Shown here: positions 1,400 to 34,341 of the stretch, piece by piece
Layout: every line of letters begins with the position of its first letter
Numbering within the stretch: position 1 is the first letter of the stretch
DNA from: Saccoglossus kowalevskii
Taxonomy: Eukaryota > Hemichordata > Enteropneusta > Harrimaniidae
NCBI RefSeq assembly: GCF_000003605.2
Contig: NW_003124900.1
Location: 335,380-373,316, forward strand
Reading direction: 5' to 3'
Length of the DNA: 37,937 bases
Notes under the pieces: model-generated
The model's database searches: none
What the model was told of the DNA's origin: nothing
Seen by the model: the letters and a program-made list of their open reading frames with translations, nothing else
Program-made: the position numbers and the translations under genes

Positions 1400-2066
1400 A
1401 TAGAAGTGACCAAAAAAGAAGAATATGACACCAATGTCAGAAGTAGCAAAACTTCGTCTCAAAACAATAACATCGAGTACTATGATGAGTACTCCGACTC
1501 CAACGACACTGCTGTGACGGTGCAAAATTTATCTACATCACAGTCCCTCTATCATAGAGGGACTGTGTCTACATGTAGCTCAGACATTGAAGAATCAGAA
1601 GAAGCGCCAATAAGTGCATCAGAAAGGAAATTATCGTCACATGGTGACGACGATGAAATGGCTGACGCAGATGGATCGCTGAGACTGATCGATATCTACA
1701 TTTTAAATAACGAACTTTTTCGGCGATCGCGGTGCTCAAGCTGCAACGACGGGTATTTGACATTGGAGGGAGACACACGGCACGGCTGGGGTCCCACTTC
1801 CTGTTTAAATGTTCAAATTCCCAATGTTATTTTTCCTCAGCCGAGAGCATTTTCCCGTCTTCTGAAAAACAAGCAAAACAGTACTAAGTAAACAGGAAAA
1901 TGGTGATCGCAGGAAGAGCGATCGGTAAAGACCGACGTGCGATGGCAAAATTTGCCACGTACATGGGTTTACCGACAGCAATCCACCGGGACCCATACAA
2001 AAAACACGTTGTTGAAGTGGCAAAAGGAGCCGAGAATGAACATGAGAAAGGTTCTACAGTATAAAT
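1400..2066 (+). pseudogene. Mutator-like (MULE) transposase, decayed N-terminal fragment
   Basis: Two open stretches in different frames resemble the N-terminus of the large invertebrate 'Mutator-like transposase domain' proteins. The first, open from 1400 to 1891, has an acidic, Ser-rich leader, then LRLIDIYILNNELFRRSRC, a Cys-x2-Cys knuckle (CSSC) and 'RHGWGPTSC'. This matches the usual layout of a leader, a short Leu-rich helix, then a zinc knuckle. The second, 1900-2066, reads MVIAGRAIGKDRRAMAKF... MGLPTAIHRDPY, matching the conserved 'RAIGxGxxAxxxFxxxMxMPPP...Y' segment that follows the knuckle. The frame changes between them and no catalytic domain follows, so this is a dead fragment. 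The first frame has no ATG before its acidic middle; 1406 is a GTG. A 29-bp palindromic element plus its duplication sits in-frame at 1539-1574. Assignment is from memory of the family. Confidence 0.6.
1539..1567. mobile_element. 29-bp palindromic micro-element, copy 1
   Basis: The arm CACAGTCCCTCTA, the loop TCA and the arm TAGAGGGACTGTG form a perfect inverted repeat. The seven bases on each side, 1532-1538 and 1568-1574, are identical (tctacat), a perfect target-site duplication. The same 29 bases occur at 34313-34341 with a different perfect 7-bp duplication. This copy lies inside the MULE transposase ORF. Element plus duplication is 36 bp, or 12 codons, so the frame stays open through SQSLYHRGTVST. 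Confidence 0.85.
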
Positions 2067-2276
2067 GCACTTCCGTCATATCTGAAATAAAATGAACACA
2101 AAGAATGTCCACAAAATTCATTTTATAAAATGTTAACACAAATGCACTAATCGCTGTGATGAAGTTTATCTCTCCGGATTTGAGTAAAAATGCAGTCCAA
2201 ACGGCGACTGGACAAAAAGACAAATAAATACGTCGAACAAGTTGCATTTCAATTTAGGCGTCATGAAAAATAGATC
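2067..2276. other. unassigned gap between MULE remnant and MITE A
   Basis: AT-rich sequence with no coding similarity that I recognise. It may be decayed MULE sequence, but the translation shows no family motif. Confidence 0.3.
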
Positions 2277-2537
2277 GATAAACATTGATTGATTTCTCCA
2301 CAATCCAATGCACTCTTCTAATGAAAATCACAAGTAAGACGCCTGACCTGGGCGCAACTTGCACTAATTACCACCTGTGACTCTTTCGATACCTTCCAAT
2401 CACTGGCACCTAAAAATACCTAATTAAAGCTCTCAGTTTGTACTCGTGGATCTCCGCAGCAGCCAAAGTCGCCATTTTTATTGATATGAGAGCCATATAT
2501 CTCGCGCATGCGTGGCGCGACGACTACCACCCTTTAA
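2277..2537 (-). mobile_element. TTAA-flanked MITE family A, truncated copy
   Basis: In reverse orientation it matches the complete copy at 3169-3475 throughout, including the inner motifs 'atggcgac', 'aagctttaatta' and 'gtgatttccatt'. The terminal repeat is present at the high-coordinate end (gcgacgactaccaccctttaa). The other end stops near 2277 without its terminal repeat, so the copy is truncated. Confidence 0.7.
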
Positions 2538-3168
2538 CAGATCCTTGGTAGACCTGTATCATTCCACAATAAATCTTCATTCCCAAATATACTGTCTAGT
2601 ATTCATTCACAATAAATTACTTTTCCTTGTACGTACTCGGAAAACATTATTGGTAATCAAGTATAATTCTTAAGCGACGACGTCGCGATTAGGTTAATTC
2701 ATTGACATCAATGTTGCCGCCATGGTATTGAGTTTTTACCCCAGCGCGACTAGTTCGAACCGCGCGAATGACTGAGGTAATTGCAACGCCAAGGCTACTG
2801 TAATTGCAACTTCCCTACACTATTTAGTATTTTTCTTGCAGCTTTTATTATCTTTCTTACACTAATCTCACTGTTTTGACTGTTGGATATATTATCTGAC
2901 AACAAAATTAACTTTTAATTAACTAAAGTGTTCATTCAATTTCATTCAATTTCAACCTCTTCATGATTTTGATATTTAAAGGGCCGAACCAATTCACCAT
3001 TGGATAAAATACATGCACTATCCCTTGCCTCATTATTTATTTTTAGTAGATCAACTAACCTTTTTGGGGGGGTCGGATGTTTCAAGTAATGCTGCAGTAG
3101 CTTGACATGTACAATTGCTGTATTTCTTTTACCATTGAACAGTTCATTCTTCCATTATTCTCTATAAT
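2538..3168. other. unassigned spacer between two family A copies
   Basis: No gene or clear repeat is seen. The bounding MITEs are in opposite orientation, so the stretch could form the loop of a large inverted repeat. Confidence 0.35.
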
Positions 3169-3475
3169 TTAAAGCGCGGTAGTCGTCGCGCTGCGCATAT
3201 GCAAGGTATATGGGTCTCATATAAACAAAGATGGCGATGTTGACTGTTGCACAGATTAACGAGTACGAACTGAGACATTTCCAAGCTTTAATTAAGTATT
3301 TTTTATGTTATTGGAAGGTATCGAAAGAGTCACCGGCGGTAATCAGTGCAAGTCGCGCTCAGGTCAAACCTCATTCTCGTGATTTCCATTTGTAGAGCGC
3401 ATTGAATTGTAGGAAAATCAATGTTTATCAACACAAATGTAGCACATGCGCAGCGCAACGACTACCGCGCTTTAA
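3169..3475 (+). mobile_element. TTAA-flanked MITE family A, complete copy
   Basis: TTAA is present at both ends (3169-3172, 3472-3475). The terminal inverted repeats are about 34 bp, with 32 of 34 bases matching by eye; both begin TTAAAGCGCGGTAGTCG. There is no ORF. TTAA duplication is typical of piggyBac and Kolobok elements. The ends start AGCG after TTAA, so Kolobok is the better guess, but no transposase is present to decide. Confidence 0.8.
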
Positions 3476-3985
3476 CTTATATTAACTAATCAACACTATT
3501 TTTTTAAATTTAACTTCAACGTTTTCGTTTTTAATTCGATTGTTATTTTTTTCAAACTAACTACTATTCAAACTTTTAGACTGAACATCTTGATATCGAT
3601 AGGATGAAATCACACTGAAATTCACCGTTTAATTCTGGTTTACAACTAATGGTACTAACGACAAGTAGTAAGCTGTTTTCCGTTGAGAATATGCTATTGC
3701 TTGATATGTTTTCAAATAGTATTAATATTTTTATTGATTAATATGAACAGGGCTTTGTAAATTATACATATTTGCAACTAATACTAGGAATCGGAAATCA
3801 TCATAAATTCATATTATAAGATTTCCGGAATGTAGCATATATGCATGGATTGAACAAACAAGAGGGACGGTACGTATGGCATACGATTAGTCTGTAATCG
3901 CTTAGGTAGTGGTGATAACAGAGGGACTGTGGTTTACATAAAGTACTCAATGAACCATATACGCATTACATGTACAAGCCTATCT
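3476..3985. other. unassigned AT-rich stretch with a palindrome half-site
   Basis: No gene is seen. At 3920-3931 AGAGGGACTGTG matches 12 bases of one arm of the 29-bp palindromic element, without the opposite arm nearby. Confidence 0.35.
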
Positions 3986-4030
3986 CTATTCTATTCTATT
4001 CTATTCTATTCTATTCTATTCTATTCTATT
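3986..4030 (+). repeat. (CTATT)9 microsatellite
   Basis: Nine perfect tandem copies of the pentamer CTATT. Confidence 0.97.
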
Positions 4031-5226
4031 AACATTACAAATACTAGCCACAATCTTTCTGAATGCTTGTACAACATACTAGCGGAATCAAAATCACAAT
4101 AAATGTTAGAACATACGTTGGTTGGTGTAACAGTTCCTTGTTTGTATTGACATCTTCCCAGTTAAATAAACACATAGTTTGTTTCTAAATATAACATTCT
4201 ACGCATGCTGCACAACGACTGTCCGGTTTTAATAAGAACTGCTGTCATCCTTGGTAACTGGAAATATTTAGAAAAATAGCAGCAATTCACAACATTGCTT
4301 AATAAAGTGAAGTTGCATTCCATAAATCAAACATTTCATTTCAATTTGTTCGGCGTAATTACAAAGATAATAATGATTATTGATTTTTATTAAAATCATC
4401 GACTTAGCTGCCGCTGGTGGCACCCTCACTTAACGTCCTCAGTAATCAGATGAGCATTCAGCTCTGATGATCTATGCTTGTGTGATACTGATCTGAAGCG
4501 GGCTTTGCGTGCGATTGTGAAGTATCACACATTTTACTATTATGTTTAACAGCGTCCAAATTAATATCGGAAAATATGATGGTGTTCGCAAAAGGCAGTA
4601 CTAGTATATTATGTTATTTAATTAATACATTACCTGTTCTTCCAAATTACCAGCCAAATTTGTTCATGGGCAAAAAGTTTGTTCATTTTTGGTCAAGATT
4701 TTTCAGCAGCGAGTTGACCAAATTAATATGCATACATCCATGTACCCACACATATTAAAATGATGATATGGGTGCACTTATATTTGATCTTTGACCAAAA
4801 ATTGACGTTTTTTTCAAAATTTAACTGGTATTTTGCGCTGTTTGATGAGTACCGCGTGACATGAAAGGGAACAGGCAACGGATCGTATGCTCAGATGTAC
4901 TCTTCAGTTAACCCATGGATGTACTTTACGGTTTTGCCTGGCAGGTGAGTTGTATTGTTAAATACGATCAGTCAAGTGATAGATCTGAAATGGCTTAGGG
5001 ACAGGACGTTAATAACCAGGAGGAAGGCCGGGGGCGAATTGAGAAAGCCAGTGACCCAAACTGTATGACCTTCTCACACTGCAGGAAAAAATCTCTGACC
5101 CTCCCCCAACGTTAGGCGACAGTCATCAAATGAGTATTGCCAGAAAATCACTTGATGCATCATCATAATTATTTAATTTAGAATGACGCAATGGCTGTTA
5201 AGATCTCAATTGCCAACCAACAACAT
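4031..5226. other. unassigned intergenic stretch
   Basis: No supportable gene. A weak relic resembling the end of MITE family A (gcatgctgcacaacgactg followed by ttttaa) lies near 4203-4232. The remaining open frames are short and show no family features. Confidence 0.35.
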
Positions 5227-5390
5227 TTAAAGCTTGGGAGTCGTCCCCTGAGCATGCGCCAGGTGGCCATAGCGTGTCGTTGTTTACAAGCAAGCGTCTA
5301 CCCATGAGCCTTCGCGTTTTAGCATGTGTTATTATCGTCGCTTGGGACTCAATTCCCGCGCGTGCGCAGGTGACGTCCCTCCCGCTTTAA
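5227..5390 (+). mobile_element. TTAA-flanked MITE family C, copy 1
   Basis: TTAA is at both ends, with imperfect terminal repeats of about 30 bp that include a GCATGCGC-type motif. The interior (ggccatagcgtgtc, gtctacccatgagcc, ttgggactcaattcccg) is shared with copies at 16096-16260, 22679-22842 and 26787-26952. There is no ORF. Confidence 0.8.
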
Positions 5391-6610: not shown

Positions 6611-6624
6611 ATCGAGCTCAATCG

Positions 6625-9328: not shown

Positions 9329-9383
9329 TTAATGGACGGCAGTCGTCGTGCCGCGTCCTGTCCGATATGGGACTCAAATATGT
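9329..9383 (-). mobile_element. TTAA MITE family B, end fragment
   Basis: It starts at TTAA and matches the reverse complement of one end of the element at 11316-11448 (gtcgtgccgcgtcctgt followed by atgggactca). The match fades after about 55 bases and there is no partner end. Confidence 0.5.
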
Positions 9384-11448: not shown

Positions 11449-12953
11449 TTAACTGTCACAGTCTGAAATTTTCACACCATTTCGAAGAGGTCTTTTCGAA
11501 CAAAAGAGCGTCCGGGCTTATTTTGGACAGTATCATAAGAAGTGCGACATACTGATCGGAATTGAATATACAGACAAACAAATCATCCAACCGAGTTAAT
11601 ATCCGTTCCACCATCCGTGAGTATTAAATCTGCCATGCCGTGTAGATGAGAAAACAAACAAACAATACAATTATTATTACTATATTGTTATAATATTGTT
11701 ATTGAAATACCGGGGATACATTCAAAAAATATATATATTTTTTAATGTTATTCTTCAACATTTTTGCAATGTTTGCGATTTCATGTATTTGAATTTGGCA
11801 CAAAAGGATTGTTGCATTTATTATGCGTCCGAATATCCTTCTCGTTCCACCAATTTCATTATTCCATATTATAACATTTTCATTTACGTGGCTACGGACC
11901 TGATACATACACTGTCGACAGTTCCTCGGGTCTAAGGGAATAACCATTTATTATTCTGGGGGGGGGGCAGACAGAGGGGCAGCATATTTTCCAAAACCAC
12001 AGAGATGGGACGTAAGTTACTTTTTATCAAGGCTGGGGGTCTCTTAAAGATTGAGACACTTTTTTTTTTACTTTACGCCTTTTATTGAACACAAAATAAA
12101 TAAACTGAATATACTTAAATGTGATAAAATACAAATATACATATAGAAAGTATTTTGTTAACAGATGTAAAATAATATATATCACAAAAATAAACGTGGA
12201 AAGTCAGTATCAATTAACAATTTCTCATTTTTCCTAAAGGGCTGCACACTTTTTTTTTATTTGAAAAAAAACCGAGAATTGACCCCCCTAGGAATAATAA
12301 ATGATCATTCCCTACTGTTTAAACGGGGATTGATATGCCCAGTGTAATTCGCATTCGCATTGCACATTTGATTAAACCGTTTTAGTTAAACAAAACCTAA
12401 GGCCAGAGGGACTGTCGACAGTCTGTGTGTCGGCCTACAGAAACTACTGTAGTAGAAGTAGTAATACTAATAGTAGGTTTCTGTTGAATCGAATCAATAC
12501 CGTGATGATCAATTATAAATTTGCCAGGGTTACGGTATCACAAATTGATTACAAGGCAGATATCTTATACTTTGGTGTGATTGACCGATGATTTCGGCTT
12601 AAAAAATAATAATTATTGTTATTTAACATGAATAGCTAAACTGATTTCAACAAATGAAATCTGTAAAATTACGCAACGTGTTGTACACAAAAATGTTTGA
12701 AGCCTCGAGTTGCAATGGCAGATATCTTTCACATACGGAAGTTTAACACGCCACAATTGCACGTATGTTGTGCAATGAAAGCAACGACCTGGTAGCTTTA
12801 CCCGGCCACTTGATGATACACTTGAATGTGTTACATTTAGCGCGACAACAAATTTCGGTAAAGTCACTCATGGAAATAAAATAATTACAGTTTTACTCAT
12901 GAAAAAGTTTGTTTGACAATATATAACCAAAGCTAAATTGATTACATTTGAAC
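11449..12953. other. unassigned AT-rich intergenic stretch upstream of the VWD gene
   Basis: No coding region is supported. It holds a G run at 11960-11967 and T/A runs near 12060 and 12250. Confidence 0.35.
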
Positions 12954-13153: not shown

Positions 13154-16100
13154 ATGAAGTGTGATACGAAGATATTCGCAGCAGTGCTCTTAGCGGTGAG
13201 TTTTCACTTTTCACTTTGTATCATTTCAATTTTGTTGCGAGGAACACGTCATCTACTACTGATAGGGCTTGCCATCAGATATGCTAAAGCGTTTTTGTAC
13301 TGAAACAAACAGTGCTTGACGAAACAAAAAGTTTTCTTTGACGATTATTTAAAATGAAAGCATCCTGAAGGCGAGAATTGAAATGAACTTTCATATACTA
13401 TTAATTTGATCGAATACAAATTGTTTATTTCTCCAAGAGAAACCAATTAGATTGTTTTAATACACTACAACATCGATTGAGAACAATTGTAGGACTTCAT
13501 TCATTTTGAATCTGTATGTCAAATGCGACCAGGTGTCAGTGCGTCGTTTTATGTGGTAATAATCGGATGAAACCCTTCAATGTGTTGAAATATTCTATTG
13601 AATGCGACATGCTCATTTCACTACATAATGATGTCGATTAACGTAACTTTGAAAACTGAACAAAACATGCACAATCCTGGCTCAACGAAAAGTACACATA
13701 TATTCGATTGATGAAACCATTTTTGGAGTTTCGAGAGTATCGGACCATTTATATGTGGGATCTCGTTCCATGCCAGGCGTCGGGTCCTGCCATTGAATGT
13801 CAATGTTGTCTGAACTGTTATATTTATGTAGCAATTGTATAAACCGTGTCCACAACTTCACACTGTTGTAATCCCATATTAAAACAGTACATTGTTGTAT
13901 CAATGATTGAGTTTCAAATATGGTTATTGAAATTGCATTTCGTTGATTGTTAGCTCATCGGAGCCAGACTGGCACCTATCTGAATCTGAATTTGGTAACA
14001 GGAAAATTTACATTTTTGGCTAAAAAGAACTAGTTTCATTTATTTATCAGGATTCTCACATTCGCTAGCGATTTTTTCTTAAACACAACACAACATAACA
14101 TAACAAAACGTTTAACGAAAATGTTACCTTGTTTCACCATTCACCGGGGACAACAATTCAGGCGTACTTCTATGTGTTTTATATCATAGCGATATGTGTA
14201 AGGGTGTGTGCCTCCATTTGAACATGTTTTCTGTAAATCTTCCCATTCAAACAATCAATTGCTATATTAGCCTTAAACAAATGTTCAAGTTGAGGTGATA
14301 CTTTCGCAATTGCAGGATTTTACTCTAAAAGTGTAGCTTTGGGAATGTTTAGTTCGGCGTGCACGGTCGTCTCTCTTGTCTTGTATTATGTACAGCTATA
14401 CAACATGGTACATTAGTTTTAACATGACTACATTGAACAGCGAATGTCGAGGGAATAATTGCTTTGATCGAACAAATCAATATAACTAAATATGTTGCAG
14501 TTGACTTAATATTAACTAAGATCCGCAAACAAGTTGATGTTTACGTGAACAGTTCTACACAACGCTATATAACTAGAGGCAGGCGTGGAGTACAGACTTT
14601 TGCCATATAGATGAAAATAACTTATACTCACTAATAAACCTACCTCTATGCTTTACTATGTCTATATCACATTTATCAAATTTAAATAAGCTTTTTTTGA
14701 AAGGAAAGACCAAATTGAATCAAATTGAACAATCCTTTACCATGTTATTGCTGAACAACTATTAAACTTCGAATTCTAATCGCTTGGTTCATGTTAGTTA
14801 GTTATCTGGATGTTTACTGAAAACATTTTGCAACAAGATCTAGATCAATGTCAAACCGTTTCGTACAGGCTTAAATTTAACAAGAATTATTCATAACCTT
14901 TTTTTATTTATGATTGAAAAATCACTCCCGAAATTTATTGAATTTGTCCTCGTGCTGAGCGAAAACTCATAATTCCCGTAATTGCCGTGTCCATGCCAAG
15001 GTGTAATTGTTTCAATGGCAACCTCTGAATCTGAAAGATTTCATTTTAAACTTTTTTTAGTTATAAATGAAAAATAATTCCAAAAATTGTTTCTATGCCA
15101 AACGCACCCACATCTTCAAGTAAATTTAAGAGCAACCTCTTCTGAACATTTCACGATGATCTAACATTGAGATCATAATATATCGTTTTACGACTAAACT
15201 TTGTTATAATAATTGAGTTAATTTTAGATCATGTGTCAGACTACTGCCAGAGTAGTGAAACGCGCAGATGGAAATCCACATGACCTTATGCTTCCAGGTC
15301 AGGGAATGGGTGAGTACTGACATGCTGCACGTAAATCATAGCGCAACTAGGTTTCAGTCTTGGTAATCTCAAAACGATAAGTCATTATACAGTTTTATCA
15401 GGAATGTTTTCAAATCAGTTCAAAATGGTTTCTATAAACATTGGAAATAACATCGTATTTAAACGGGAGATGCAACTGTAATATTACATTCAGTGATGTA
15501 TTGCGTTGAAACACGATTTATAATTAATGTCGATTACATGCGTTTAAAACGTAATCGCAACAATAGTATATGCGTCATGGTAATTGACAATTCTATTAAT
15601 TAGAAATATAACTAAATACATTTAATTGTTAATTGAGCTAATTACAATTTATTACCAAGGTTTATTTCTCATGGCTCATTTATGATATTTTGTTTTGCAG
15701 CGAACCAATGCTTAAAATGCAAACTTTCCGAAAAACTGAGCCTAGCGGAATGTTTGATGAAACCAGATTCTGATAACAAAAAATATGAAGACTGCAAATC
15801 TTCAAGGGTAAGTAACATACGAAATACTGTTACAGTAACTGTAGTACGGGTCGGTTACCTATTCCAATAACCAGATTTCGTTGCTATGGCAATAATTATT
15901 GTGTGTATGCGCAATAATAACCAAGAGACGACACACCAAAGCAGTGACGCTAGTGTATGGAATGAGATGGGGAAAAAAGAGGAATACTTTGTCGATTTAT
16001 TTGTGTGATACATATGTCAGATTTGGAAATGTCAACCGAATTTATTTTACCTCCCTTCTTCCACTAGCTAGAGGGCATGTACGAATATATGACAATTAAA

Positions 16101-19100
16101 GCGGGGGTGTCGTCACCTGCGCATGCGTCAGATGGCCATAGCGTGTCATTGTTTACAAACAAGCGTCTACCCATGAGCCTTTGCGTTTTTAGCGTGTGTT
16201 GTTATCATCGCTTAGGACTCAATTCCCGCACGTGCGCAGGCGAGGACCCTCCCACTTTAACTACTAGTATTCAACTTAATTTATATATGTGTTTGTTGCA
16301 GCCAGAGTGTATGACTCAACTGTGGAACTGGAATAAAAAAATGGTATTTGCTTCAGAGTGTCAACAGATCGAGGCAAGTTGAACAATAACCTAGGCGAAA
16401 CCTTATTCATACGATAAAAGTTGGTAATTTGCGCTAAAGTTATTCACAATAATAACGTCTTTGTGTATTGTATTGTATTGTCTAGGCATGTATTGAAGAA
16501 AGTTCAAATGAACCCTGGCACAACAATTGCGACAGTCCACCAATAATTGTATCAACAAAATGTAGATATTGCTGCAATGCAGCCAACATTACACAAGGAT
16601 ACTATTGCCCACTACCATCAGGTAATGCACATTAGCTTTCATTTTTTTTAAGGACGTTGCTATTCATGTAAATTATGTATGTAATTATGATTATAAAATT
16701 ATATGTGGCAGAACGATGTTGCTTCTGCGTTGTACGACGCTGTTTTGCAATTGAAAATGACCATATATTAACTCAGTTAAAAATGGAATGTGGCATGTCT
16801 TATTATCGTAACACTTCGGAATACAAGCAAATGTATTACCTTAGATAAGATCTGCATTCTGATAAAAAAACACACAATCAATATCAAATTCGTATTCAAG
16901 CTACGATTAATTTGAAAAGCCAATTCCGTAAACATAATGTATTTTAGGTATGTTGTTAAACCAGTAGGATAGTAGTAGGAAAACTAAACTATCTATGGTT
17001 AAACAGAGAAAAAAATCTATGTTAAGTCAATGTATTTGCAATTTTAATTCAGCCGATCAATTGCATTAAATTGACAAGTATGCAATATGTACTTTATATT
17101 TCTCCACTAGATCCTATGCTTTGCAAAGTTTGGGGTGATCCACGCTTCAGCACCTTTGATGGTTACAAGTACCATGAAGGAGGAGACTGTGATTTCTATA
17201 CATTGTTGAAGATGGATGGTGGAAATCATGATATACTTGTTCAAGTAACCGAGTCTGAACACCAGGGTCATTACCGTGTGGAGACAATGAAAATCACCCA
17301 AGCAGGCCAGACATTGAATGTTGGTACAAACAACCATGATGGAACAGATGTAGTGTTCACAGTAAGGAATGCTTAGCTATGTCTGTCTGTCTGTCTGCGC
17401 ATTTGTTTCTTTATCTTTATCGGCCAATTCTATCCATGCACTAGCCATCCATCTAACCGACCAACAGAACATTAATCCTTCCCTCCACCGTGAACATGTT
17501 TTACATTTGTTAGACATTTTGTACTGAATTCGTTGTGGATATTTGTTCTCATGATGATACAGTCAACGACGCTGGAACAAAGTTCAACCGTCTTTCATTC
17601 ATTCTTTCTGCCTGCATGTCAGTCAATTCATCAATCCATCCAAGCATTCATACATACATACATACACCCATCAATCCATAGATTGTTGACCTGCATTTTG
17701 TTCTTATATCTAATTTGTTATCTCTCTTATTTTATTTTTCGTTTCCACAAAGTTGCCAGGTTACACCATAAATGTTGCTGATTTCCCTTCAGTTTATGGT
17801 CAGTTCAATATAGGCAAGATAGGTGACGATTACAATATCTATATTGACACTGATTTGGATGGTTATAATGATCTTCTCATTACCTGGGGTTTCAGAAGGG
17901 TAGAACTTAAACTCACACAGCTCTTCGATGGAGATTTCCCTGTGGAAGGCCTGTGTGGCAATGCTGACGGAGACTCAGAAAATGAATTGATAATGCCAAA
18001 TGGTGCGACTGCACCCAGTGATAGCGTATTCCACAGTAGCTGGGGCACTGGGTGAGTATTAGTCTAATCAATCAATCTATTTCTGTCCCCAGATCACTGA
18101 GCAAGTACTGATCCAATCACTACTCCCCCCTCCAAGGTACTGGATGAGTAACATCTAATTACCACTTCCCTTCCCTTGGGCACTAGGTTAGTACCAATCT
18201 TATCACATACTACTTTCCATCTCCAGAGAACTGGACGAGTATTGATCTAATCCCCACTTCACTTTCCTGGAACACTGGTTAAATACAGATCTAACCAACA
18301 CTTCCCTGAAGCATTGGGCTAGTACCATTTGTATCACCACTTCAAAATCTCCTCTTTTAAATATATGATCTTAAGATATTACCATTAGGAAACACAAAAC
18401 TAAATTAATTGTGCTTAAATGTAGGTTAAATAAATAAGATGAGTAAAACATTCATTGGAAGAGGGGGGGCTTATACTCTGGGAGGGGCTTATGCTTGGGG
18501 AAGTACGGTATTTACTTAACTTATTATTGAACATTAAATCATGCGACATTCAAAAAGAATGTATGCCCTATGTATACAGGGATTGAAATAGATTTTTTTC
18601 CCTGCATGAACAGTGTGCATGTTGAATTTGAAATTTACCTGCACTAACTTGTTGTAAAATGCACCACTTTTAAAGTTTAAATAAAATTTACAGGTTATCA
18701 ATTGATGTGATTACAAAATAATTTGCTTTTTTTTGAGTTGTTTTACAATGTTGGTTGAACTTAATTGAGGCTTAGTGAATATAATGAGAAAATGTTGTGT
18801 TAATTTCTACATGCATAGCGTGCACATTATATTTTGAGTTTACTTGCACTAGCTAATAATCTATGTGCATAGTGCAGTGTGCACCAGAGTATTTCGACCC
18901 CAATGTATGAATGAATTCGTAATTTTTTAGTAAACTTATTAATGTGCATTTTAAAATATTAATTCTTCTAGTGATTCTTTGTGCATTTCAATATATAATC
19001 GCAACTATTTTTCATTTCCAACTGACAGAATTTTCTAGCTGTATATGGCCCCATATGGTCAGGAATTTAGTTCAAAGTGTATTTATTTACTGTTCATCAT

Positions 19101-19803: not shown

Positions 19804-22800
19804 TCAGCCGTCACCTTCCATAGCTACCTCTGATTGGACCTTAACATAAAACGGCCCTTCTCGTAAATACTCCTTCAGTCGCAGCAAATATGGCCGTCCA
19901 AATATGTCCGCCGTCGTAGGAGATTCAACTAATACTTTTACAATGTCAAATTTCAATTCTTTGCCAAGTTTTTCACTTTCCGTGGAACGATCCAGAATGT
20001 ACTCAGTAAATCCTGGGTAATCGTTCATCTGCCGCTGACCCCATGGTTGGTTTCCTATACTTTGTAAAACAAGAAAAGCGCCGCCACGAATTTCTCCAAA
20101 CGGTTGATTACAAAGTCCAAACATTGTGTCCATAGGTTTTGAGGATATTTCAAGAAACCATCTTTCGGTCAGAGAGAGGATGTCTTCTGTCTGTTCTGCC
20201 TTCTGAGAAATGATACAAAACATAAAACAATCATAGTTTTACCAAAGACATATCGTTAGCTGACTTGACATCATCAGGCTAGAAAGGGATCGCAAAAACA
20301 TTTCAGTGTGGCTTTTGACAGTATTGTTCAATTTAATTAGCATCACATTATGATTTTAGTGTAAACTGTGTAAATTCAAGTGTGACTTTTCAACACATTG
20401 GATAGTGCTATGTGTAATACACATATTCATTCCTGCCATTTCATGTGGAAATAAAACATTTCATTTTGTCATGTTAATATTTTGGTTAATTACATCCCCT
20501 TATTTTGAAAATAAAAAAAACAAGCCATGCATGGCACAGTCACCGTTAGTTATCAAACTTAAGATATATAATTTTGTTTATAGTAATATAGTTCAAACAT
20601 AAACATGTCAGAGATATGGATCCAGAAGCTGATGCTTGATTATGGTGATTTTTTTTATCACTGAACTGATTGACATTCAGTCATCTTATATCTGAATGTC
20701 AAATGAGTACTTGCCCATATTGAGAGATATTGCTGTGGAACAGCATTAATTAAAACAAAATAGCCACCAGTCGTTCATTTTGAATATATCTGTATATCTA
20801 CAACATGATGTAGAATGAATATATGAAAATTTAACATAATCAGTCAAATCATGTCAGAGATACGGCTCCAGAACCACACTCATTGGCCATTTTGAATCGG
20901 ATCGTCAAACCAATAAATCTGTATATCTATGACATGATCTATGATGAATATAATAAATTCGTACATAATCAGTCAAAGCATGGCAGAGATACTAGTATGA
21001 CACTATAACTGCATTCATTAAAACAAAATGGCTGCCAGTCGGCCATTTTAAATCCAATCTGAAAAACAAAATGATGTGCATCAAGGTCCCATAATGTCCA
21101 ATGTATGCACCAAGTTTGAACAAGATCCATCAATAAATGCTTGATTTAGATGATTTTTCAGCACAAAACGGTCACCATTCGGCCATTTTGAATCAGGTAG
21201 TCTAACAAATATACTTGTATATCTATGACATGATCTATAATGAATATATAAAATTTGAACATAATCAGTCAAAGAATGGCAGAGATATGGCACTAGAACT
21301 GCATTCATTAAAACAAAATGGCCGCCAGTCGTCCATTTAAAATCGGATCTGAAAAATAAAATGACGTGCATCAAGGTCCTAGTGTATGCACCAAGTTTAA
21401 ACAAAATCCATCCATAAATGCTTGATTTTGATGATTTTTTAGCACAAAAATGGCCACCATTCGGCCATCTTGAATCAGATCGTGAAACAAATTGATTAGC
21501 ATATGTATAACATCATGTATGATGTATGCGTGAAGTTTGATTGTGATTGGTCCAGGCATTTCTAAAATACAGGCTGGATGCACGCACACACACGGAGGTC
21601 AAAACATAAGTCCCCGTTTTCAGACTGCATCCGAACAAGGACAAACAAAATTGGAATACTGAAATTAAAGAAAATTGCATAGTATTTTTAAAATAATGTT
21701 TGAACACAATCAATTTTGTGGTGAAAGATTTTTTACATTTTAAAGCATTTTTCTATACTTTCTTTGTTAATTTTGAACAAAGTGGACATATTTTCCCCTT
21801 TGGTTTAGTTAGCCAGTTGTCTATTACCGGTACTATGAAATACTTGGAATTTATTTTTGTTATTTTCACTGATGATTCAGTAAAAATAATATTCAGTGTA
21901 TATACCTTAAATTCAACCCTTTGAAAAGCAGTGAAAATAAACTCTAGAAAAAAAAATTAATTGAAAATTAATTAACGCTAAAATATTTTACAGTATAACA
22001 TAATGAATGCCAACATTTTTTTCTCCAAAATGCTGATGCTTTTTTCCCCCATTTTTCTGTAATGTCTTGGTTATTTTGTACCAAATCCACATGATTTTTC
22101 AATACCTACCTATCTACCTAAAAGTCCTGATATTGAAAGATGACTTTGGCATTGAAAGATTTAAATGGCCGTTGTATTCATTAAACATACCTTGACATGT
22201 AGCAAAGCAGCAATAGATTCCAGTGTTCGGATTCTCATCTCAGTTGGAGGCTGCTGTACAAGTGAGCCCATAACTCTCATACAATCTATCATGTTTTTAC
22301 CTGCAACAAGTAAGCACAGCGTCCTCTAGTGTTATATATTGGAAACGCATATTGTGGAATTAACATAAATAAGTGAGCAGATGATGGCAGAATGTGGTAA
22401 ATAAAATTTGAATTTAATACAAAGCAATAGCTATTAAAATGCACCTGAATTTTGCTTCTAGTTGTATAAAAAATTCATCAAAAGAATTCTGACTATTCTG
22501 ATGAACTATGAATTCCCCACCCCACAGAGTCATATTTGATATGAAGAAGGGCACGTCTTGGTACAAGAATGTGTTCAACTCTGCCTCACACATAATCTTG
22601 CCATAAAGCCTTCCCCTCATCCAATGCACTGTGGAGGATTAATTACTGTTTAATTGTTCAAGACATGCACCAAAATATTTAAAGTGGGAGGGTTGTCACC
22701 TACGCATGCGCGGGAATTGAGTCCCAAGCGACGATAACAACAATGCTAAAAACGCAAAGGCTCATGGGTAAACGCTTGTTTGTAAACAATGACACGCTAT

Positions 22801-25800
22801 GGCCATCTGACGCATGCGCAGGTGACGACTCCCCCACTTTAAGTGAACATTTCTGTCCGAACCATGTTATTTAAACAATAATGAAACTTTCTCTGTGCCA
22901 GCTCCAAATTCAATATGACACTGGGGGTATGCACTATTGCAGGGGCGGATACAGGGATTTTTTTTAATGGGGGGGAGGTCCAAACTTTAAAATCGCCAGA
23001 CTAAGTTAATGATTTTTTTATATTATACAAAAACATATTGTATCCGCCACTGTATTGTCATTGTAAATCACCACCATAGAATTAAACAAATTCACTTAAA
23101 TTAAATCTTTTTGTTGAAATAAATTTATTTGTGAATATTATCACCTCATCGTGTGATAATAAAGCCATGGTACAATAAATACTTCAATTGAGATAGTTGT
23201 GATTTATAACAATAATGTACACTATAGAGTCCTTTGTTTTATTTATAATACCATTGACTGTGGAAAAACTGAATATATGTGCAGTGGTAGGTCAAGAAAT
23301 AAACAATGTGGTTAGAACATCATGGATGCTTGAGCAAACATGTGTCCATACACACATAGGTGAATTTCCAGATGAAAATTCAAGGATTTCTAAAACTTGA
23401 ACAAATAATGGTAGATTTGTTGTTTAAACTACCGTAAAATCTGTATTAGAAGCTGCATCTCTAGTATAAGTCGCACCCATTCTTTTCGAAGAATTGAGAC
23501 CCAAACATTCGCCATTTCTTGTATGTGTAGATGCACTAATAGAAGCCGCATCCCCTCTGTTGCATTGTACCATTTTAATACAAGCCGCTGTTTCTAATAC
23601 AGATTTTACAGTATTTATATAAATGTGGGGAAACATTGAATGTTGATGAGTCACATTATAATACAGTATGTTGCATTTTAATAAGGCAATACACTGTATT
23701 ATAATTAAAATTCTTGTAGTCTTTGTTCTCACCTTGTTTATGGAGTACAAGTTTCCCTGCAACTGTACTTCCCACAATTCCCACAGTATCTATGGCAACA
23801 CCCTTCTGCGTGAGATCAGAGCTTGTTAGCAGAGTAAAGACGGTACGAACAAACAATGGATGTTTCTCAAACACTTCACTTGGTTCGTATCTCGCTATAC
23901 TGCCGAAGAATTTTATCAATCCTGGAATGAAAAATCAACCGACTGAGCGAATAAAAAAATCACTTTTATTTCATAATTGTTTGTGCCAGGAAACATTTCT
24001 GAATATTGAAATCACTTCGGACTCTCCTGCTGTTTCCCAGAGCAGGCTGCATTTTGACACTGATGAGTAAACAATAAGCTTTGGGAAACCAATCGACAAG
24101 TGCCTGATACGAGGCTAACAAGCTAACCTGCGTACTGTCACTGTGAATGGCCTTGATCAAGATTGTTTCATCAAAGTTTGAGAAATTTACTGATACTTCT
24201 GAAAATATTAGTCATTGTTATACATGATCCAAAAAAATGGACCATGTTTTTATTTGATCAAAATTACAGATTGGGTTTGCACATGGAATGTCTGTAATAT
24301 AGATTTAAAGTTTTGTCATAGACATGACATGGTGATATTACCGTTAAAGACATTTTTATTGAAAAAGGATGAACTAATGCTACGTATAAAATACTTACAT
24401 GAAAGACATGGACACAAATTTCCCCTGGGGGAGTCATGTAATTTTGCAGCAACTGTGGTTTCAAAATTTGTGAGCGTAATTCTAATTTGACAAGATTGCA
24501 AAGATTTAGATAAAATAATAAAAAATTACATTGGATGTTTCCCAACTATCGTCCTACTTGTAACTCATTCTCTGCCAGTCATTGGGGGATGTTGATTGGT
24601 TGATAAAAATAGAACGCTGCTAATCTGAATACTGTAAGATTGGATGACAGTTATAGCATAACAGTAATAGGATAGCAACATATTACCTGATAGTTGCCAT
24701 AGCAACAAATATACATAGACATTAAAATAAATTCAAATAGTTGATTAGCTGAAAGTCCAGACTACATTGTTGACTAACCAGTGGAATGAGAGTCAGGCGC
24801 ATCTCTGAAGACAAGTATGGTTCATACCTGGCATAAGGAATCCAACCAATGGATCACTCTCTGCAGCCACCATGATGGATTCCACTTTACCCACAATGCC
24901 TTGTTGGTCCAGATACTGGAGGCCATGTTGGCAGCTGGCAATGGTAGACAACATTTCAATACAGTTCATTTGTATAAGTATATCATCTCTTTCTAGTTCT
25001 GATATCAACTGAGTGATAATTCCAGAGTTGCTACCGTACACGATGGCTTGCGGAGAAGTCAGAAATATATCTACTGCCACCTATAGAAATAATTATGCAT
25101 CAAATTGAACATGAAATCAAGACAAACAAAAGTCATAACATCAAAACATTATGCAATAATCAGGTATTTTCACATTTAATAATGGCTATACATGCTGGAT
25201 GGTGATAAATTTGTATAGAGTAAATGTATTTCAATGCAATACTTCTATCTGAAAGATTGACGTTTGACATTGTGCTGAAAAAAAATTTCAAATTCAAATT
25301 CAAATCATTTAATTTTCGTGACAGACTGTCAATGAAAGCTGTATAGGCTTTAAGTGGGACCTCACAGCGAATGGAAAAAAACCTATTGTTTAATCATTCG
25401 AATGAATGAGACAATTACATCCATAAGGAGTGCTGAACAGAACCATGACAATTGTTGTTCTCCTTATAGTAGAAATAGTATCATCAAATGTATACTGAGT
25501 ATTCAAATGTACTGTCTATTGTGAAATGACTTAATACATGTAGTAAAAAATGTTTAATATGAAGATTGTTATATTAAACTTTCATTCCAAATTTATAAAC
25601 TGTCATTTGCATTTCCTTACATTTTTTTGAAAAAAATCATCGCATGAGAGAAAACTAGAGACGCTGGAAAGTTATCTCCCACAATGCATTGCATATGTGA
25701 GCAGTAACATGCTCAGTAGTGCAAAATTTGAAGTTATCTCCCACAATGCATTGCATATATGAGCAGTAAGATGCTCAGTAGTGCAAAATTGGAATTCTGC

Positions 25801-28800
25801 CTGAATAATTTTAGAATGTATCAAATCAAAGTGATGTACTGAAATGCCACAATACCTCGTATACTCTGTATCTGATGACATCATCAATTTTCATCAATGA
25901 CTTCATTTTGTCGAGTAGATTTCCTTGAAAGAGGAATTCTAATCCGGCTTGTGATTCTCCGAGACACTTCAGTACTCTGCCAGCTTCTTTACCCACACTG
26001 ATTTCTTTGTCTGCTAGACACTGCACACACAAGTACAGTATGTCTAATGATGACTGCAACAGCTCTTGTCTACCCTTCTCAGTTGACGCACATCGGTAGA
26101 CCTGAGGTCAATATGAGCAATTATAAAGATAATCACTTGGCTATGAAACCATCAGAGGTTATTAAATGACAATCACAATGGTATCACGTCAGCATATTCA
26201 TAAATAATTGTGAAGTTGTGAAGCACAGTGAGACAAAATAAGTCGTTGAGACCACACAGTAAAATATTCGGCAAGTTGTTAAATACAAATTAGGTTCATA
26301 ATTGCAGAAACACATTGTATACATGAAAATTAAAGCGGGGGTAGTCGTCATCTGCGCACGCGCGGAAATTGAGTCCCAAGCGACAATAATAACACAAACT
26401 AAAAACGCAAAGGCTCATGGCTCATTGTTTGTAAACAATGACAATTTTCAATGGAATTGATTGAAATGTCACCAAATTGTGGTGGTTATCGCACAGTGTC
26501 TTGTTCGATATGAGACTCATAACAATGTACACAACACGTGTAAAATACATTGTTTACATGAAATTCGAACATGCATATGACATCGCTTGCTGACGCCATA
26601 ATATAAAGCAGGGGATTCGTCACCTGCGCATGCGTCAGATGACCATAGCGTGTCACTGTTTACAAACAAGATAAGATAAAAGGTCAGAATTCTCCAAATA
26701 TGTGACTTCATAAATACTGTACACGATGAGTTATAATAATAATACGGCTCAGCTAAGGCTAGGGCTATTGACTAACAATCCTTTGCTTAAAACAGGGGAG
26801 TCGTCACCTGCGCATGCATCAGATGGTCATAGCGTGTCATTGTTTACCAACATGCGTCTACCCATGAGCCTTTGCATTTTTAGTGCGTGTTGTTATCGTC
26901 GCTTGGGAACTCAATTCCCGTGCGTGGGCAGGTGACGACCCTCCCGCTTTAATACAACTCGCATTATGTGTGACATGTGACACGCAGAGACTGTAAAAAT
27001 AAAGTTAGATTACCTGCAAGAGGCAGAGTTCTTTCATTTGAACAGATTCACTCTTTATACCGCTGTATATTTCATCTTTATACTGCGTTATCACAGAGCA
27101 CGGATCGGAGGCTGCGAACAATCTCTTCAGAATTTCTTTACTCAATTCAGCTTCATCCCTAAAATTGATAGAATTCAGTGCAATCTGTAAGCCGTATGGA
27201 CATGTTCGAAAGTACCGGCATTATTTATGTCTTACCTAACATAATAATATCATTCCAAATGCAAAAACAACTGTGTCTGATAATAATGATTTAATTTGTC
27301 AGTTTGATACGACTATGGATTGTACCAAAGGTACATTACTTGGGGTTTGCAACTACGGTGACATGATACCAAGATCCTGTTTCAATCTCGCTCTCGCATA
27401 AGCGTTCCGACTCAGAAAAATGCGAATGCGCATGCCCGAGGTAACTAGGATACTGGGATGTCCAGGTGGATCAAAATAGTTGATCACGATATGACAGATT
27501 AGGATAACTATATTTTCTGTACATTTTCATTGTATTACATTTTTTCATTATGAATGTGGCAATACATGTTCTGTTGTTTTATTACAAACCGTCTATGTCA
27601 TGTCAGAAGGTCGTAGCATCAGTCTCGCTATCTACGAGATGAGACTTGAATGGGATCTTGGCATGATGTTACCATACAGTACTACGCATGTTGCAAAGCC
27701 CAAGTCATGTACCTCTGATTGTACTCATTCCATTTTGTGACCTCTGCTCAGCTGTACTTGAATGTTTGTCGAGTTGCACAAAACTTATATATGCTAACTG
27801 GGGTGCAATAAGCCCTGAGTACAGTCCTGTAGGTTGGCCTCCTTTCGCTGATCATTCGGCATAAACCGAGGATTCGATTCAAATTTAGAGGCATTCAGCT
27901 TTGTATAAAAAATAAGCAGGTTGATACGTCTAACTATTCTAAATACCGAAATTACATAAGATTTCCCACTAGGGTCGATCAAATCGACATTTTCCAACGT
28001 CAACCGAAAATATACGCCGCCATCTTGTTTTTGACGTATTTATTAACAAAACTTTGTTTCGTTGCGTAAAACTAGCTTTCGCCAACGTCTAGTACTGTAG
28101 GTTCGTTTTTCGACCACAAAAAAAGGTATTTGTGATCGCTAGATTGGTCGATTGATGTTTTAGCTGGTTACAATCATGAAAACTGCAGAAGGGTTCTCCG
28201 CAATAAATTTGTAGGCGGGTGTCGAATCCTCAGACTATGCGACTTTTCAGGACTGTTGGGGCCGAATGATCAGCGGAAGGAGGCCAACCTACAGGACTGT
28301 ACTCAGGGCTAGGGTGCAATAGATCCTGGCTAGTTTTTAAGTGCACCCCCTCAGATTACAATTATGTTTTCCAGGTTTGTATTCATTAATAAATATGATT
28401 GGAATATACAATACATGTAAATACGAAACTGCAAAATATTCTAGTGTATTTCACCGAATTGAAATAGTAAATGGTAATTTAAGTCACATCAAGCACATAT
28501 AGTAAAAACACCTAGCTTGTGTTTTTTTGAATTCTTTTTTTATTTATATGTGAGCGTAAAATTAGATGTATATTTCTATAATTTATAACAATCGGAATGA
28601 CATAGGACCAAGATAATACTGCCACCGTGTGCAACATGACCAGGGGGAAATAGCCTACGAATAGGAACTATTACAGTCTCCACCGAGGAATCCAGAGTAT
28701 AATAACACCACTTTTGCAGAGTCATGGCATACCTGTTTTTCTCCTGCATACACTGAAACAAGATTTGTAATGATAGGTTTGGCACAACGTCGTCTAAGTC

Positions 28801-28914: not shown

Positions 28915-28985
28915 TTTGCGATGAACTCTTCCGCATCATAATTCCAGTCGACTGAGGGCGCTCTCGATATAGCGCTGAAAAGTGA
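28915..28985 (-). promoter_or_regulatory. likely PSMD5 core promoter / 5' UTR
   Basis: Immediately upstream of the PSMD5 start on the minus strand lie a GCGGAAG motif (28928-28934, ETS-like) and GC-rich sequence, without an obvious TATA box at a suitable distance. This fits a TATA-less housekeeping promoter. It is an inference from sequence only. Confidence 0.35.
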
Positions 28986-29555: not shown

Positions 29556-29670
29556 GCAAATGATTGTTAGTCAATAGCCCTAACCCTAGCCGAGCCGTAT
29601 TATTATTATAACTTATCATGTCTGTATTTGGAGAGATCTGACTTTTTACCTTATCTTATTTTAACTTGTA
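29556..29670 (-). repeat. dispersed repeat F, copy 2
   Basis: The inverted counterpart of 26671-26786, with most positions matching. On the far side it keeps TTAA (29552-29555) where copy 1 has a family C MITE inserted, so this may represent the empty target. Confidence 0.7.
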
Positions 29671-31699: not shown

Positions 31700-31705
31700 A
31701 CATTT

Positions 31706-31756
31706 CACGTGGTGCCTCCCGTTTGACGTCATGGAAAATTTTCACTTCACCACGTG
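31706..31756. promoter_or_regulatory. symmetric E-box / CRE / E-box cluster
   Basis: CACGTGGTG (31706-31714) and CACCACGTG (31748-31756) are exact inverted repeats, each carrying a CACGTG E-box. A full CRE palindrome TGACGTCA (31724-31731) lies between them near the centre. An ATG in good context (aaaATGg) follows at 31767, but its frame closes after 16 codons. It may be a regulatory element of an unseen gene, or chance. Confidence 0.35.
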
Positions 31757-32332
31757 GGACAGCAAAATGGCATACACCCAAGAAGAAATAACGGCAACAT
31801 CTCCTTTTTATTACTAGACGACTGCTTTTTAGTCACGCTATGTGTGAAGTACTGGTTTGTTAATTAGATGGTTCCAAACAACATTGGTGAATATGCGTGA
31901 AAAATGTGACTCATGTTGGTAAGTGATGGTGTGCCTTGTTTTACCACAAAATTAATGCGGATATATAGTAATCTCAAATATTTAATTTAGTTCTTGTCTT
32001 AGAGCTGTCCAAAGTACGCCTATTTATCCTGGTATATATTATAAATCCACAACACTTTAGACTATAACGTTTCACTGCCTGTAACGGCCATCGATATGTA
32101 AACCACAGACTAAGTCAGGTTCGCCAATCTGTGACGAACAAGTAGGTTCATTAGCTGAAGAGAAAATAACGATTTCACCAAATTCACGAACTCAAATCGT
32201 TTGATTAAAGAACGTTAAAATATTACATTGTACTTAGATGGACCCGGTGATGTGGGTGAACGAATCTGTCGATCGGAATACCATGTATGATGCGATACAA
32301 ACCTCGTGTAGCGCTCGCTTCCAGGTTTCAAA

Positions 32333-32579
32333 ATGGCGGACACAAATTACGACCAATTTCGCAAGCTGTTTTATGCGTCTAAAATTGTCTGTCCTATATC
32401 ATTTGGGTATCATATCACAACATTTTTAAATTTGCGTTTGAATTTTAAAAAAAACACAGTTTTGCAGGAATTCAGAAGAGCTCTATGAGTATGTCGACCC
32501 AGGGAGAGAGAAATGTCGACTGTGTGATACTATTGTGAACAAATACTCAACATATTCATCAACATTTCCAAAATCATGA
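32333..32579 (+). CDS. weak two-exon candidate ORF with a C-x2-C motif
   Basis: Exon 32333-32406 starts at ATGGCGGAC (context aaaATGg). Joined to 32468-32579 across a 61-bp intron with a gtatca donor and tttgcag acceptor, it reads 61 residues. The second exon includes EELYEYVDPGREKCRLCDT. The C-x2-C resembles the start of a BED-type finger in transposases, but no His pair follows before the stop. This could be a decayed transposase start, a small gene or chance. Confidence 0.22.
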
Positions 32580-34305
32580 CCCAGTTACAGCTGGTATCAA
32601 CGAATTGTTGTTGTTAAAGAGACGGTCTGGGCGCACACAACAACTAGACTTATAGCCAATAATCTGAAGTTGTTGATTGCACTACCTAAATCAGAAATTT
32701 CATCCAACATGCTTTGCTGCGGACATCACGCCAACAGAGTAACCCTGAACAATCTAGTACAATTTTTTATTATCAGGTAAACCAAAATGTCATGCAGAAC
32801 AGTTTTCAAAATTGTCCTGAAATTAAATTTTATATATTTTTTGCCTATGTCGCCAACATAAAACCATTGAGGAGGTACCATGATGAACACAGAAAACACA
32901 AGGAAACAAGATCGTTAAAAAAATTGTCAATTATTTTCGGTTTCGGTCTGTTGACACATTTTCGATTCCAGCGGATATGTGTGATCGATCGCGCGACAGG
33001 GTGATTTAGTCGCCACGCCAACTTCCGTATGGTTTATTACACTACATACGGATAACAACTCTCCCGCAAAAATACCAGAATTCAATTTAAAACTGGTTTC
33101 ACGCGGCACTCATGAAACATCGCTAGTTTTAGTAGTAGACGAAACAAGTATGTGACCAAACATTGTGAATACTGTGAATTGGCGGGAAATGTATATGAAC
33201 AACACGGTCGTCCGCCCTCAACCAATGGTCTGGGTATAAAATGTTCTACCTTTCAATTGGCCACACTCATTTGCCTCTATAGGTGGGTGACTCAATGACA
33301 ATCCATCTTGGGGCAAAGACGATTGTTACACGTGGCAATGTCTAAGCTCGCGAAATATATATTTCGTGGAAGAAACTGGGGTTTTCGTTTGATCGAAGCC
33401 GACACGTCTACCACCAAACCTCGAAGGCATTGTTGTCAACAACTTAATACATTTTTTTGGAGAATGGTCGCTTTTGGCCTGTACAGCCCTCTACGTGGTG
33501 TGCAACGTCTAATCATCTGTTCACTATGTAACCCCGGTCTTCAAAAGCGCGGATAACGAAATCGTCCTAAACTTTTGGCGGCGGCGGTCCGAAAATGTCT
33601 GATTACGACTTATATACTTAGATTCTCCGAATGACAAAATTGGATTGTACAGTAAGTGATTTTATTGTTGTACTGTTATATTTGTGAATTCAGTGGTGGT
33701 AGTCTGTGACGGCAGCTCCGTCCATGTATGAATATAGCCAACAGGAAAATTCCGATTGTTTGTCATGTATGTTTAAAATTCGGATTATTATTACAAATTC
33801 GTGTTTAAGAAAAACAGATCCCCATAGCTGTATCGCACGGTATTGCCCGGTGGTTATTGCATCGGCCGCACAGACATGGTGAGGCACATCGCCACTCCCC
33901 TACCACGCCAATAACGCAGAACTTTTGTGTTATTTGCTAAAAATTTAGCGTGTACTTTGTCATAGTGGGTAGATTTCACTGAAATTACAAAATATAGTCT
34001 TCCGGAATCTACGATGTCTCGTCGGGCTCCAATTCACCCATTATGAGGCCTCTGGTAAGACATGCGTTTACGCGGCAAAGTGGGGACTAAGTGGGGGAAA
34101 AACACGAGTGCCAGGCGGTTACGTAAACCGGTATATTCCCACGTATTGTTTACAGTAATCGCCACTGTCCATCTGAGAATATATACCGAAGAAAGCCACC
34201 TGTAGAAATGATTAATGTCCAATCGCTGAATTTTGATCCAACGAAAAACCGAACACCGATCACTGCCCCATAACTTATCAATATGGCAATAAGACTCTCG
34301 TCTGC
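32580..34305. other. unassigned intergenic stretch
   Basis: Nothing here could be supported as a gene, RNA or repeat. Open frames are short and lack family features. Confidence 0.35.
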
Positions 34306-34312
34306 ATCAGAG

Positions 34313-34341
34313 CACAGTCCCTCTATCATAGAGGGACTGTG
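34313..34341. mobile_element. 29-bp palindromic micro-element, copy 2
   Basis: Identical over all 29 bases, and in the same orientation of the TCA loop, to 1539-1567. It is flanked by perfect 7-bp duplications atcagag at 34306-34312 and 34342-34348, which differ from those of copy 1. Confidence 0.85.

What the first reader, a model, noticed from the sequence alone, without database searches (positions are those of the whole stretch)
1539..34341. A 29-bp perfect palindrome that inserts with 7-bp target duplications: a candidate minimal transposable element
Seen directly: two identical 29-bp palindromes (13-bp arms, TCA loop) at 1539-1567 and 34313-34341. Each is flanked by a perfect but different 7-bp direct repeat (tctacat; atcagag). 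Different duplications at each site argue for two independent insertions rather than a segmental copy. A unit with nothing but two abutting terminal repeats would be far below usual MITE size. Inference: it may be mobilised by a transposase that recognises the CACAGTCCCTCTA end, or inserted as a hairpin intermediate. Elements with 6-8 bp duplications (P, Dada, hAT, some MULEs) are candidate partners.
Basis: partly seen in the sequence, partly recalled or inferred. Interest (0 to 1): 0.9.

Follow-up and report, generated by a model that had tools for sequence, protein, structure and literature searches.

The report
P-type transposon excision scars
The two identical 29-letter palindromes are very probably not tiny mobile elements but scars left where a P-type "jumping gene" cut itself out and the cell stitched the ends together; the genome carries many such scars, which record how it repairs broken DNA.

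Summary
In detail: two identical 29-bp palindromes, each between its own perfect 7-bp direct repeat. The minimal-element reading is very probably wrong. The window's own genome (572 Mb, unnamed, animal-like) holds 23 exact copies (58 places within 2 mismatches) and 211 matches to a wider palindrome pattern with differing centres. The arm is the outer part of an about 30-bp terminal inverted repeat of real transposons in the same genome (0.19-1.65 kb; 7-bp duplications in 15 of 15 examined). Scars keep at most 17 nt of each end (96 of 96 arms in a 48-scar sample), although the repeat runs to about 30 nt. That is the published signature of P transposase, which leaves 17-nt 3' tails. Centres look like end joining: 1-2 nt microhomologies, blunt joins and insertions, some copied from the arms. 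The 29-mer is one recurrent joint. Scars and elements share a target signature, and 14 paralogous empty sites lack exactly 36 bp, 29+7. A P-transposase gene with a related left end exists, but no autonomous copy with this exact repeat was found, and no site was seen both filled and scarred. Known mechanism, new family, unusually rich natural record.

The parts
1532..1538 (.). left copy of the 7-bp target duplication TCTACAT
1539..1567 (.). 29-bp excision scar: 16 nt of one P-type end (CACAGTCCCTCTATCA) joined to 13-14 nt of the other, with one base that could come from either
   Evidence: row C770 is the same 29-mer
1568..1574 (.). right copy of the 7-bp target duplication TCTACAT
1400..1891 (+). 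163-aa open frame that holds scar 1; 29+7 = 36 bp keeps the frame; possibly part of a decayed Mutator-like transposase gene (weak)
   Evidence: no Pfam match for the frame itself; PF20700 at E 0.038, under its cut-off, on the next frame
34306..34312 (.). left copy of the 7-bp target duplication ATCAGAG
34313..34341 (.). second, identical 29-bp excision scar
34342..34348 (.). right copy of the 7-bp target duplication ATCAGAG
3920..3931 (+). exact 12-bp arm AGAGGGACTGTG with no partner arm: candidate one-sided scar with deletion of the other side (not proven)

Best explanation
Each palindrome is the excision scar of a P-superfamily cut-and-paste transposon. The element inserted with a 7-bp target duplication (shown on elements and scars) and later left. 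By analogy with Drosophila P (inferred), its transposase cut 17 nt inside each terminal inverted repeat, so both flanks kept their 7-bp duplication plus a 17-nt single-stranded 3' tail CACAGTCCCTCTATC(A/C)C. The two tails are identical, not complementary, so they were joined by end joining: short internal pairings, blunt joins after trimming or fill-in, and fillers some of which are copied from the tails (junctions shown; pathway, probably polymerase-theta-like with some classical joining, inferred). The 29-mer is one recurrent joint, 16 nt of one end plus 13 nt of the other, so identical 29-mers arose many times independently.
For: (1) 211 matches per strand to CACAGTCCCTCT-N0-30-AGAGGGACTGTG, 0 for the reversed control, with many different centres among the 50 places listed. 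(2) 227 longer ends match CACAGTCCCTCTATCRCCGGTCTRGAAACG within 3 mismatches, control 0; the commonest listed forms have A or C at position 16. 15 of 15 whole elements examined (the inverted pairs that I saw among the 100 listed ends) have about 30-bp terminal repeats with 0-2 mismatches and 7-bp duplications, 11 perfect and 4 at 6 of 7. (3) Sharp limit at 17 nt: 96 of 96 arms in 48 scars; one match in the genome keeps 20 nt or more on one side with 11 or more on the other, itself readable as 17+1+16; the base after a 17-nt arm is the repeat's own C in 1 of 45 rows whose letters were shown, 1 of 34 distinct sequences. (4) Duplications: 20 of 20 further scars at 6/7 or better, 15 perfect. (5) Fillers: 4 of 19 insertions of 4 nt or more hold 11-13 nt copies of the arm, 0 of 500 shuffles each. 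(6) Shared target signature: A/T at the third base outside the duplication on both sides in 15 of 15 elements and 54 of 61 scars, against 16 to 33 of 61 scars at five other distances. (7) Empty sites: the L022 scar lies in an interspersed repeat; 14 paralogues contiguous across the site lack exactly 36 bp (alignment of a further one, L071). (8) Published P{wa} excision products from rad51-mutant flies have the same anatomy: duplications, up to 17 nt per end, one AT-microhomology joint found 14 times, templated insertions (PMC2895639, passages). (9) A gene with matches to all three P-transposase core domains lies behind a related left end, 23 of 30 nt identical by eye.
Against: No autonomous element with exactly this terminal repeat was found: the P-transposase gene in L062 has only a diverged left end and no right end in the 3.1 kb searched behind it, and the other 11 fetched P-transposase stretches show no such end. 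The 15 elements show no similarity to the L062 transposase frame (best tblastn E 6.8). No site was seen as filled in one copy and scarred in another. 5 of the 49 fetched 29-mer places match at only 5 of 7 (two), 4 (one) or 2 (two) with no better outer border found. 15 of the 19 longer insertions are not distinguishable, or hardly, from shuffles as arm copies, and most junctions have 0-2 nt of microhomology, so the repair pathway is not assigned. Only 48 of the listed places, not all 211, were classed.
Confidence: 0.92

Rival explanations
1. The 29-mer is itself a minimal transposable element of two abutting end repeats, moved in trans by a transposase that makes 7-bp duplications.
For: 23 exact copies, 17 of them with a perfect 7-bp duplication.
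Against: The identical 29-mers are one class among many centres with the same arms and duplications; arms stop at 17 nt of an about 30-bp repeat; some scars carry filler copied from the arms. From recall, Drosophila P needs internal transposase-binding sites outside the first 31 bp, which a 29-mer would lack.
Confidence: 0.03
2. The palindromes come from internal deletion of the element (for example abortive gap repair) that brought its two ends together, with no end joining of 17-nt tails.
For: Internal deletion is known for P-superfamily elements (recalled) and would also keep the 7-bp duplications.
Against: Deletion endpoints would be expected anywhere in the element, including 18-30 nt and beyond; instead 96 of 96 sampled arms stop at or before nt 17 and one match in the genome keeps 20 nt or more.
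Confidence: 0.03
3. Scars of another superfamily with 6-8 bp duplications (hAT, Dada, KDZ, MULE) that happens to cut inside its ends.
For: The autonomous source was not identified, so the transposase is inferred.
Against: 7-bp duplications, about 30-bp repeats and the 17-nt limit fit P, and a P-transposase gene with a related end is present. Scars of the other superfamilies are, as recalled, only a few nt long.
Confidence: 0.05

Closest known systems
Drosophila P element excision products (P{wa} repair junctions, PMC2895639; passages seen)
   Same: Target duplication kept on both sides, up to 17 nt of each terminal repeat retained, recurrent identical joints at AT/TA microhomologies, blunt joins and templated insertions.
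   Different: There 8-bp duplications and laboratory-induced events in mutant flies, with some long microhomology joints; here 7-bp duplications, a different terminal sequence, and natural scars in another genome.
Galileo (P superfamily, Drosophila; PMC4168063, passages seen)
   Same: Mostly 7-bp target duplications and a target motif reaching outside the duplication.
   Different: Galileo has long, internally repetitive terminal repeats (abstract of PMC3573991 in the listing); here about 30 bp. Galileo's target motif is palindromic; here the dyad test inside the duplication was negative.
P-transposase gene at L062 (contig C1630) of this genome
   Same: Left end CACCGTCCCTCAACACCCGGTTAAGAAACG and the following bases resemble the ends of the elements here.
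   Different: 7 of 30 end bases differ and no right end was found.
MITEs
   Same: The 191-bp member L108 is a short non-autonomous element with terminal repeats and a perfect 7-bp duplication.
   Different: The 29-mer has no interior of its own; its centre varies among copies of the same arms.

Membership tests
P-superfamily excision scar | complete target duplication on both sides of the remnant | tested here: met
   20 of 20 sampled scars at 6/7 or better, 15 perfect; 29-mer class 42 of 49 at 6/7 or better
P-superfamily excision scar | no more than 17 nt of each terminal repeat kept although the repeat is longer | tested here: met
   96 of 96 arms in 48 scars; 95 of 96 if any base is allowed at position 16; one match with 20 nt or more; repeat about 30 bp in 15 of 15 elements
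P-superfamily excision scar | microhomology, blunt or templated-insertion joints | tested here: met
   48 scars: 6 with 1-2 nt microhomology, 12 blunt, 11 insertions of 1-3 nt, 19 of 4 nt or more; 4 of these 19 hold 11-13 nt arm copies, the other 15 are not clearly above shuffles
P-superfamily excision scar | same site seen filled with the whole element in another copy or individual | not testable with these tools
P-superfamily transposon (the elements L094-L108) | short terminal inverted repeats of about 31 bp and 7-8 bp target duplications | tested here: met
   7 bp as in Galileo
P-superfamily transposon (the elements L094-L108) | P-type transposase encoded by an autonomous member with the same ends | tested here: inconclusive
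   P transposase with RNase H N, GTP-binding insertion (one piece over, one just under the cut-off) and RNase H C matches in L062 behind a related left end, right end not found
P-superfamily transposon (the elements L094-L108) | palindromic target-site motif | tested here: inconclusive
   strong A/T preference at the third base outside on both sides, but dyad pairing inside the duplication is not above column-shuffled sites, for 47 scars or 11 elements
   variable centres between the same arms

The most novel reading that the evidence does not exclude
Some 29-bp scars, having two abutting inverted ends within 7-bp duplications, were themselves moved again in trans by the P-type transposase, making the smallest transposable unit known; this would add to recurrent repair in explaining why the 29-mer has 23 exact copies.
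Probability: 0.03. Interest if true: 0.85.

Novelty: new member of a known kind. Interest (0 to 1): 0.5.

Why it matters
It explains an apparently impossible minimal element with a known mechanism, and it shows the 17-nt limit of P excision written into a genome whose P family makes 7-bp duplications. Scars (211 exact-arm matches) are at least of the same order as the elements that remain (227 ends within 3 mismatches; a rough comparison, since the two patterns differ in tolerance). If the reading holds, the genome is a natural archive of many germline repairs of one defined kind of break, and such archives would let one compare end-joining spectra between species without an experiment. It is also a warning: short palindromes with perfect target duplications can be mistaken for mobile elements or regulatory hairpins.

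Tried and rejected
Minimal element, internal deletion and other superfamilies: see rivals. Search of the palindrome (any 3-base centre) and of the longer end in viral contigs: 0 matches each. Paper searches for the letters of the arm: one search gave 2 papers, one search gave 180 of which 20 were listed; the listed titles are unrelated (listings only, none opened). Paper searches (listings; of these only PMC2895639 and PMC4168063 were opened, passages only) showed no title or abstract start describing this family or genome-wide P-type scars; I claim no more than that. The idea that scar 1 lies in a conserved coding exon was weakened: no Pfam match for the frame, no codon-position signal in G+C, a weak Mutator-like match in the next frame. 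The partial arm at 12404 (2 mismatches) looks like chance. A dyad-symmetry test inside the 7-bp duplication was negative.

Rows dropped: one search lists 50 places on the + strand; two nested inner matches (in C310 and C996) were dropped, leaving 48. Of the 58 places, 49 were fetched. One search has 51 rows, 45 with letters shown. In one search I let any base stand at position 16 of the repeat and got 95 of 96 arms at 17 nt or less, one at 18; with only the A and C forms that I saw in the whole elements it is 96 of 96. A count of 36 (base after a 17-nt arm) took some sequences twice; one search recounts it.
Full report
What was claimed and what is there. The two 29-bp palindromes are exactly as described, each inside its own 7-bp direct repeat. 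The genome holding the window can be searched (572,110,611 bases, 4830 contigs, unnamed). I take it for an animal from its gene content: the window has two frames matching the von Willebrand factor D domain and frames that I recognise from memory as a proteasome subunit 5 gene (one frame scanned, no Pfam match). It holds 23 exact 29-mers and 58 places within two mismatches, 0 for the reversed pattern.

Variable centres. A pattern that fixes 12 bp of each arm and allows 0-30 bp between finds 211 matches on each strand, control 0; nested matches are counted, so distinct places are slightly fewer, and 50 places were listed. The centres differ: 24-bp CACAGTCCCTCTAGAGGGACTGTG, 26-bp CACAGTCCCTCTATAGAGGGACTGTG, 34-bp CACAGTCCCTCTATCACGTGATAGAGGGACTGTG, and longer ones with filler. 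So the 29-mer is one class of a family of junctions, not a fixed unit.

The source elements. Some arms continue not into a palindrome but into a sequence like CCGGTCTGGAAACG. A search for CACAGTCCCTCTATCRCCGGTCTRGAAACG finds 227 ends within 3 mismatches, control 0, 100 listed. I fetched the 15 inverted pairs that I saw in that list as whole elements: 191 bp and 1116 to 1646 bp long, each with terminal inverted repeats of about 30 bp (0-2 mismatches), in two main forms, TATCACCGG and TATCCCCGG, and each with a 7-bp duplication (11 perfect, 4 at 6 of 7). The scars' arms are the outer part of these repeats.

The 17-nt limit. In 48 scars (contig order; two nested matches dropped) all 96 arms keep 12 to 17 nt: 6, 11, 21, 18, 22 and 18 arms at 12, 13, 14, 15, 16 and 17 nt (the floor of 12 is set by the pattern; allowing any base at position 16 gives one arm at 18). 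A pattern asking for 20 nt or more on one side and 11 on the other finds one match in the genome, which can be read as 17 nt + C + 16 nt. Among rows with a 17-nt arm the next base is the repeat's own C in 1 of 45 whose letters were shown (6 more withheld), 1 of 34 distinct sequences. Random deletions inside the element would not be expected to stop there.

The duplications. Twenty more scars, the first listed places not yet fetched, all match at 6 or 7 of 7 positions (15 perfect); chance for 6 or more is about 0.0013 per site. In the 29-mer class 42 of 49 reach 6 of 7 or better. Two of the other seven are inner parts of compound scars with good outer duplications; five remain (two at 5 of 7, one at 4, two at 2), perhaps from mutation, flank deletion or rearrangement.

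Same target choice. At the third base outside the duplication both sides are A or T in 15 of 15 elements and in 54 of 61 fetched scars with 6 of 7 or better, against 16 to 33 of 61 scars at distances 1, 2, 4, 5 and 6. Both window sites have T on the left and A on the right. This supports that scars and elements were made by the same insertion machinery. Dyad symmetry within single duplications was not above shuffled columns, which does not match the palindromic motif reported for Galileo.

Empty sites. The scar in L022 (C4620:112721) lies in an interspersed repeat. Of 39 other places that match its left flank (40 scored of 341 candidates), 15 also have a listed match to its right flank; in 14 of these the two matches meet so that exactly 36 bp, 29 + 7, are absent, and in the fifteenth 71 bp lie between (coordinates compared by hand). 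A further copy, in L071, is shown aligned. The other 24 places had no listed right-flank match and say nothing.

Mechanism. Drosophila P transposase leaves 17-nt non-complementary 3' single-stranded tails, and repair junctions of P{wa} from spn-A (rad51) mutants keep the target duplication with up to 17 nt of each end; one joint with AT microhomology was isolated 14 times, long-microhomology joints also occur, and larger insertions are mostly templated from flanking sequence (PMC2895639, passages read). The scars here have the same anatomy. With tails CACAGTCCCTCTATC(A/C)C the 24-bp and 26-bp scars are joints at TA and AT; the 29-mer joins 16 nt of one tail to 13 nt of the other with one ambiguous base. 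Of 48 junctions 6 have 1-2 nt microhomology, 12 are blunt, 11 have 1-3 nt and 19 have 4 or more nt inserted; 4 of the 19 contain 11-13 nt copies of the arm (0 of 500 shuffles each), the other 15 are short and not clearly above shuffles. This fits theta-type end joining mixed with other joining; the pathway is inferred. My search patterns asked for at least 11-12 nt of each arm, so scars that lost more were mostly not counted; a few such were seen (L082, L084).

Which transposase. The genome has 13 matches to the P-transposase RNase H domain. The best, at C1630 (L062), also has the GTP-binding insertion domain (one frame over, one just under the cut-off) and the C-terminal RNase H piece. Left of it, at L062:2114, lies an end 23 of 30 nt identical (my count from the alignment) to the family here; another related end, L093, matches it at 80% over 51 bp. 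No right end was found in the 3.1 kb searched, and the other 11 fetched P stretches show no such end. So placing the elements in the P superfamily rests on structure, cut position and this related gene, not on an autonomous copy. Galileo, also of the P superfamily, makes mostly 7-bp duplications (PMC4168063, passages).

Scar 1 and the reading frame. Scar 1 adds 36 bp inside a 163-aa open frame without breaking it. I do not claim a functional exon: there is no Pfam match and the neighbouring frame looks weakly like a Mutator-type transposase.

Verdict. The candidate minimal element is very probably a recurrent excision scar of a non-autonomous P-superfamily family. The mechanism is known from flies; what is unusual is the number of natural scars and how cleanly they show the 17-nt limit and the repair choices.

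Noticed in passing
window 3920-3931: Exact 12-bp arm AGAGGGACTGTG without a partner; perhaps a third, one-sided scar with the other side deleted.
   Followed up: partly
L035 (C2865) about 1001-1323: One scar with duplication TACAGCC found three times within about 320 bp: a scar amplified in a local tandem duplication.
   Followed up: partly
L087 and L088 (C447:172347-172787 and 181728-182168): The same scar with the same right flank, as far as fetched, at two places about 9.4 kb apart, while the left flank is shared for only about a dozen bases.
   Followed up: no
L091 (C662:97765-98205): An element end in which the first 13 nt are followed by a second, nearly complete end: perhaps a repair-made duplication at a still present element.
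   Followed up: no
L082 and L084: Strongly asymmetric scars that keep about 13 nt on one side and few on the other; the palindrome patterns used here miss such scars.
   Followed up: no
L062 3564-6876: P-type transposase gene in several frames (RNase H N, GTP-binding insertion, RNase H C), perhaps with introns, behind a related left end.
   Followed up: partly
window 5227-5390, 16096-16260, 22676-22845, 26326-26952, 37338-37408: A dispersed repeat with TAAAG...GGGAGTCGTCACCTGCGCATGCG units in both orientations; similar copies lie in the flank of the L001 scar and in L007, L009, L014, L045 and L073.
   Followed up: no
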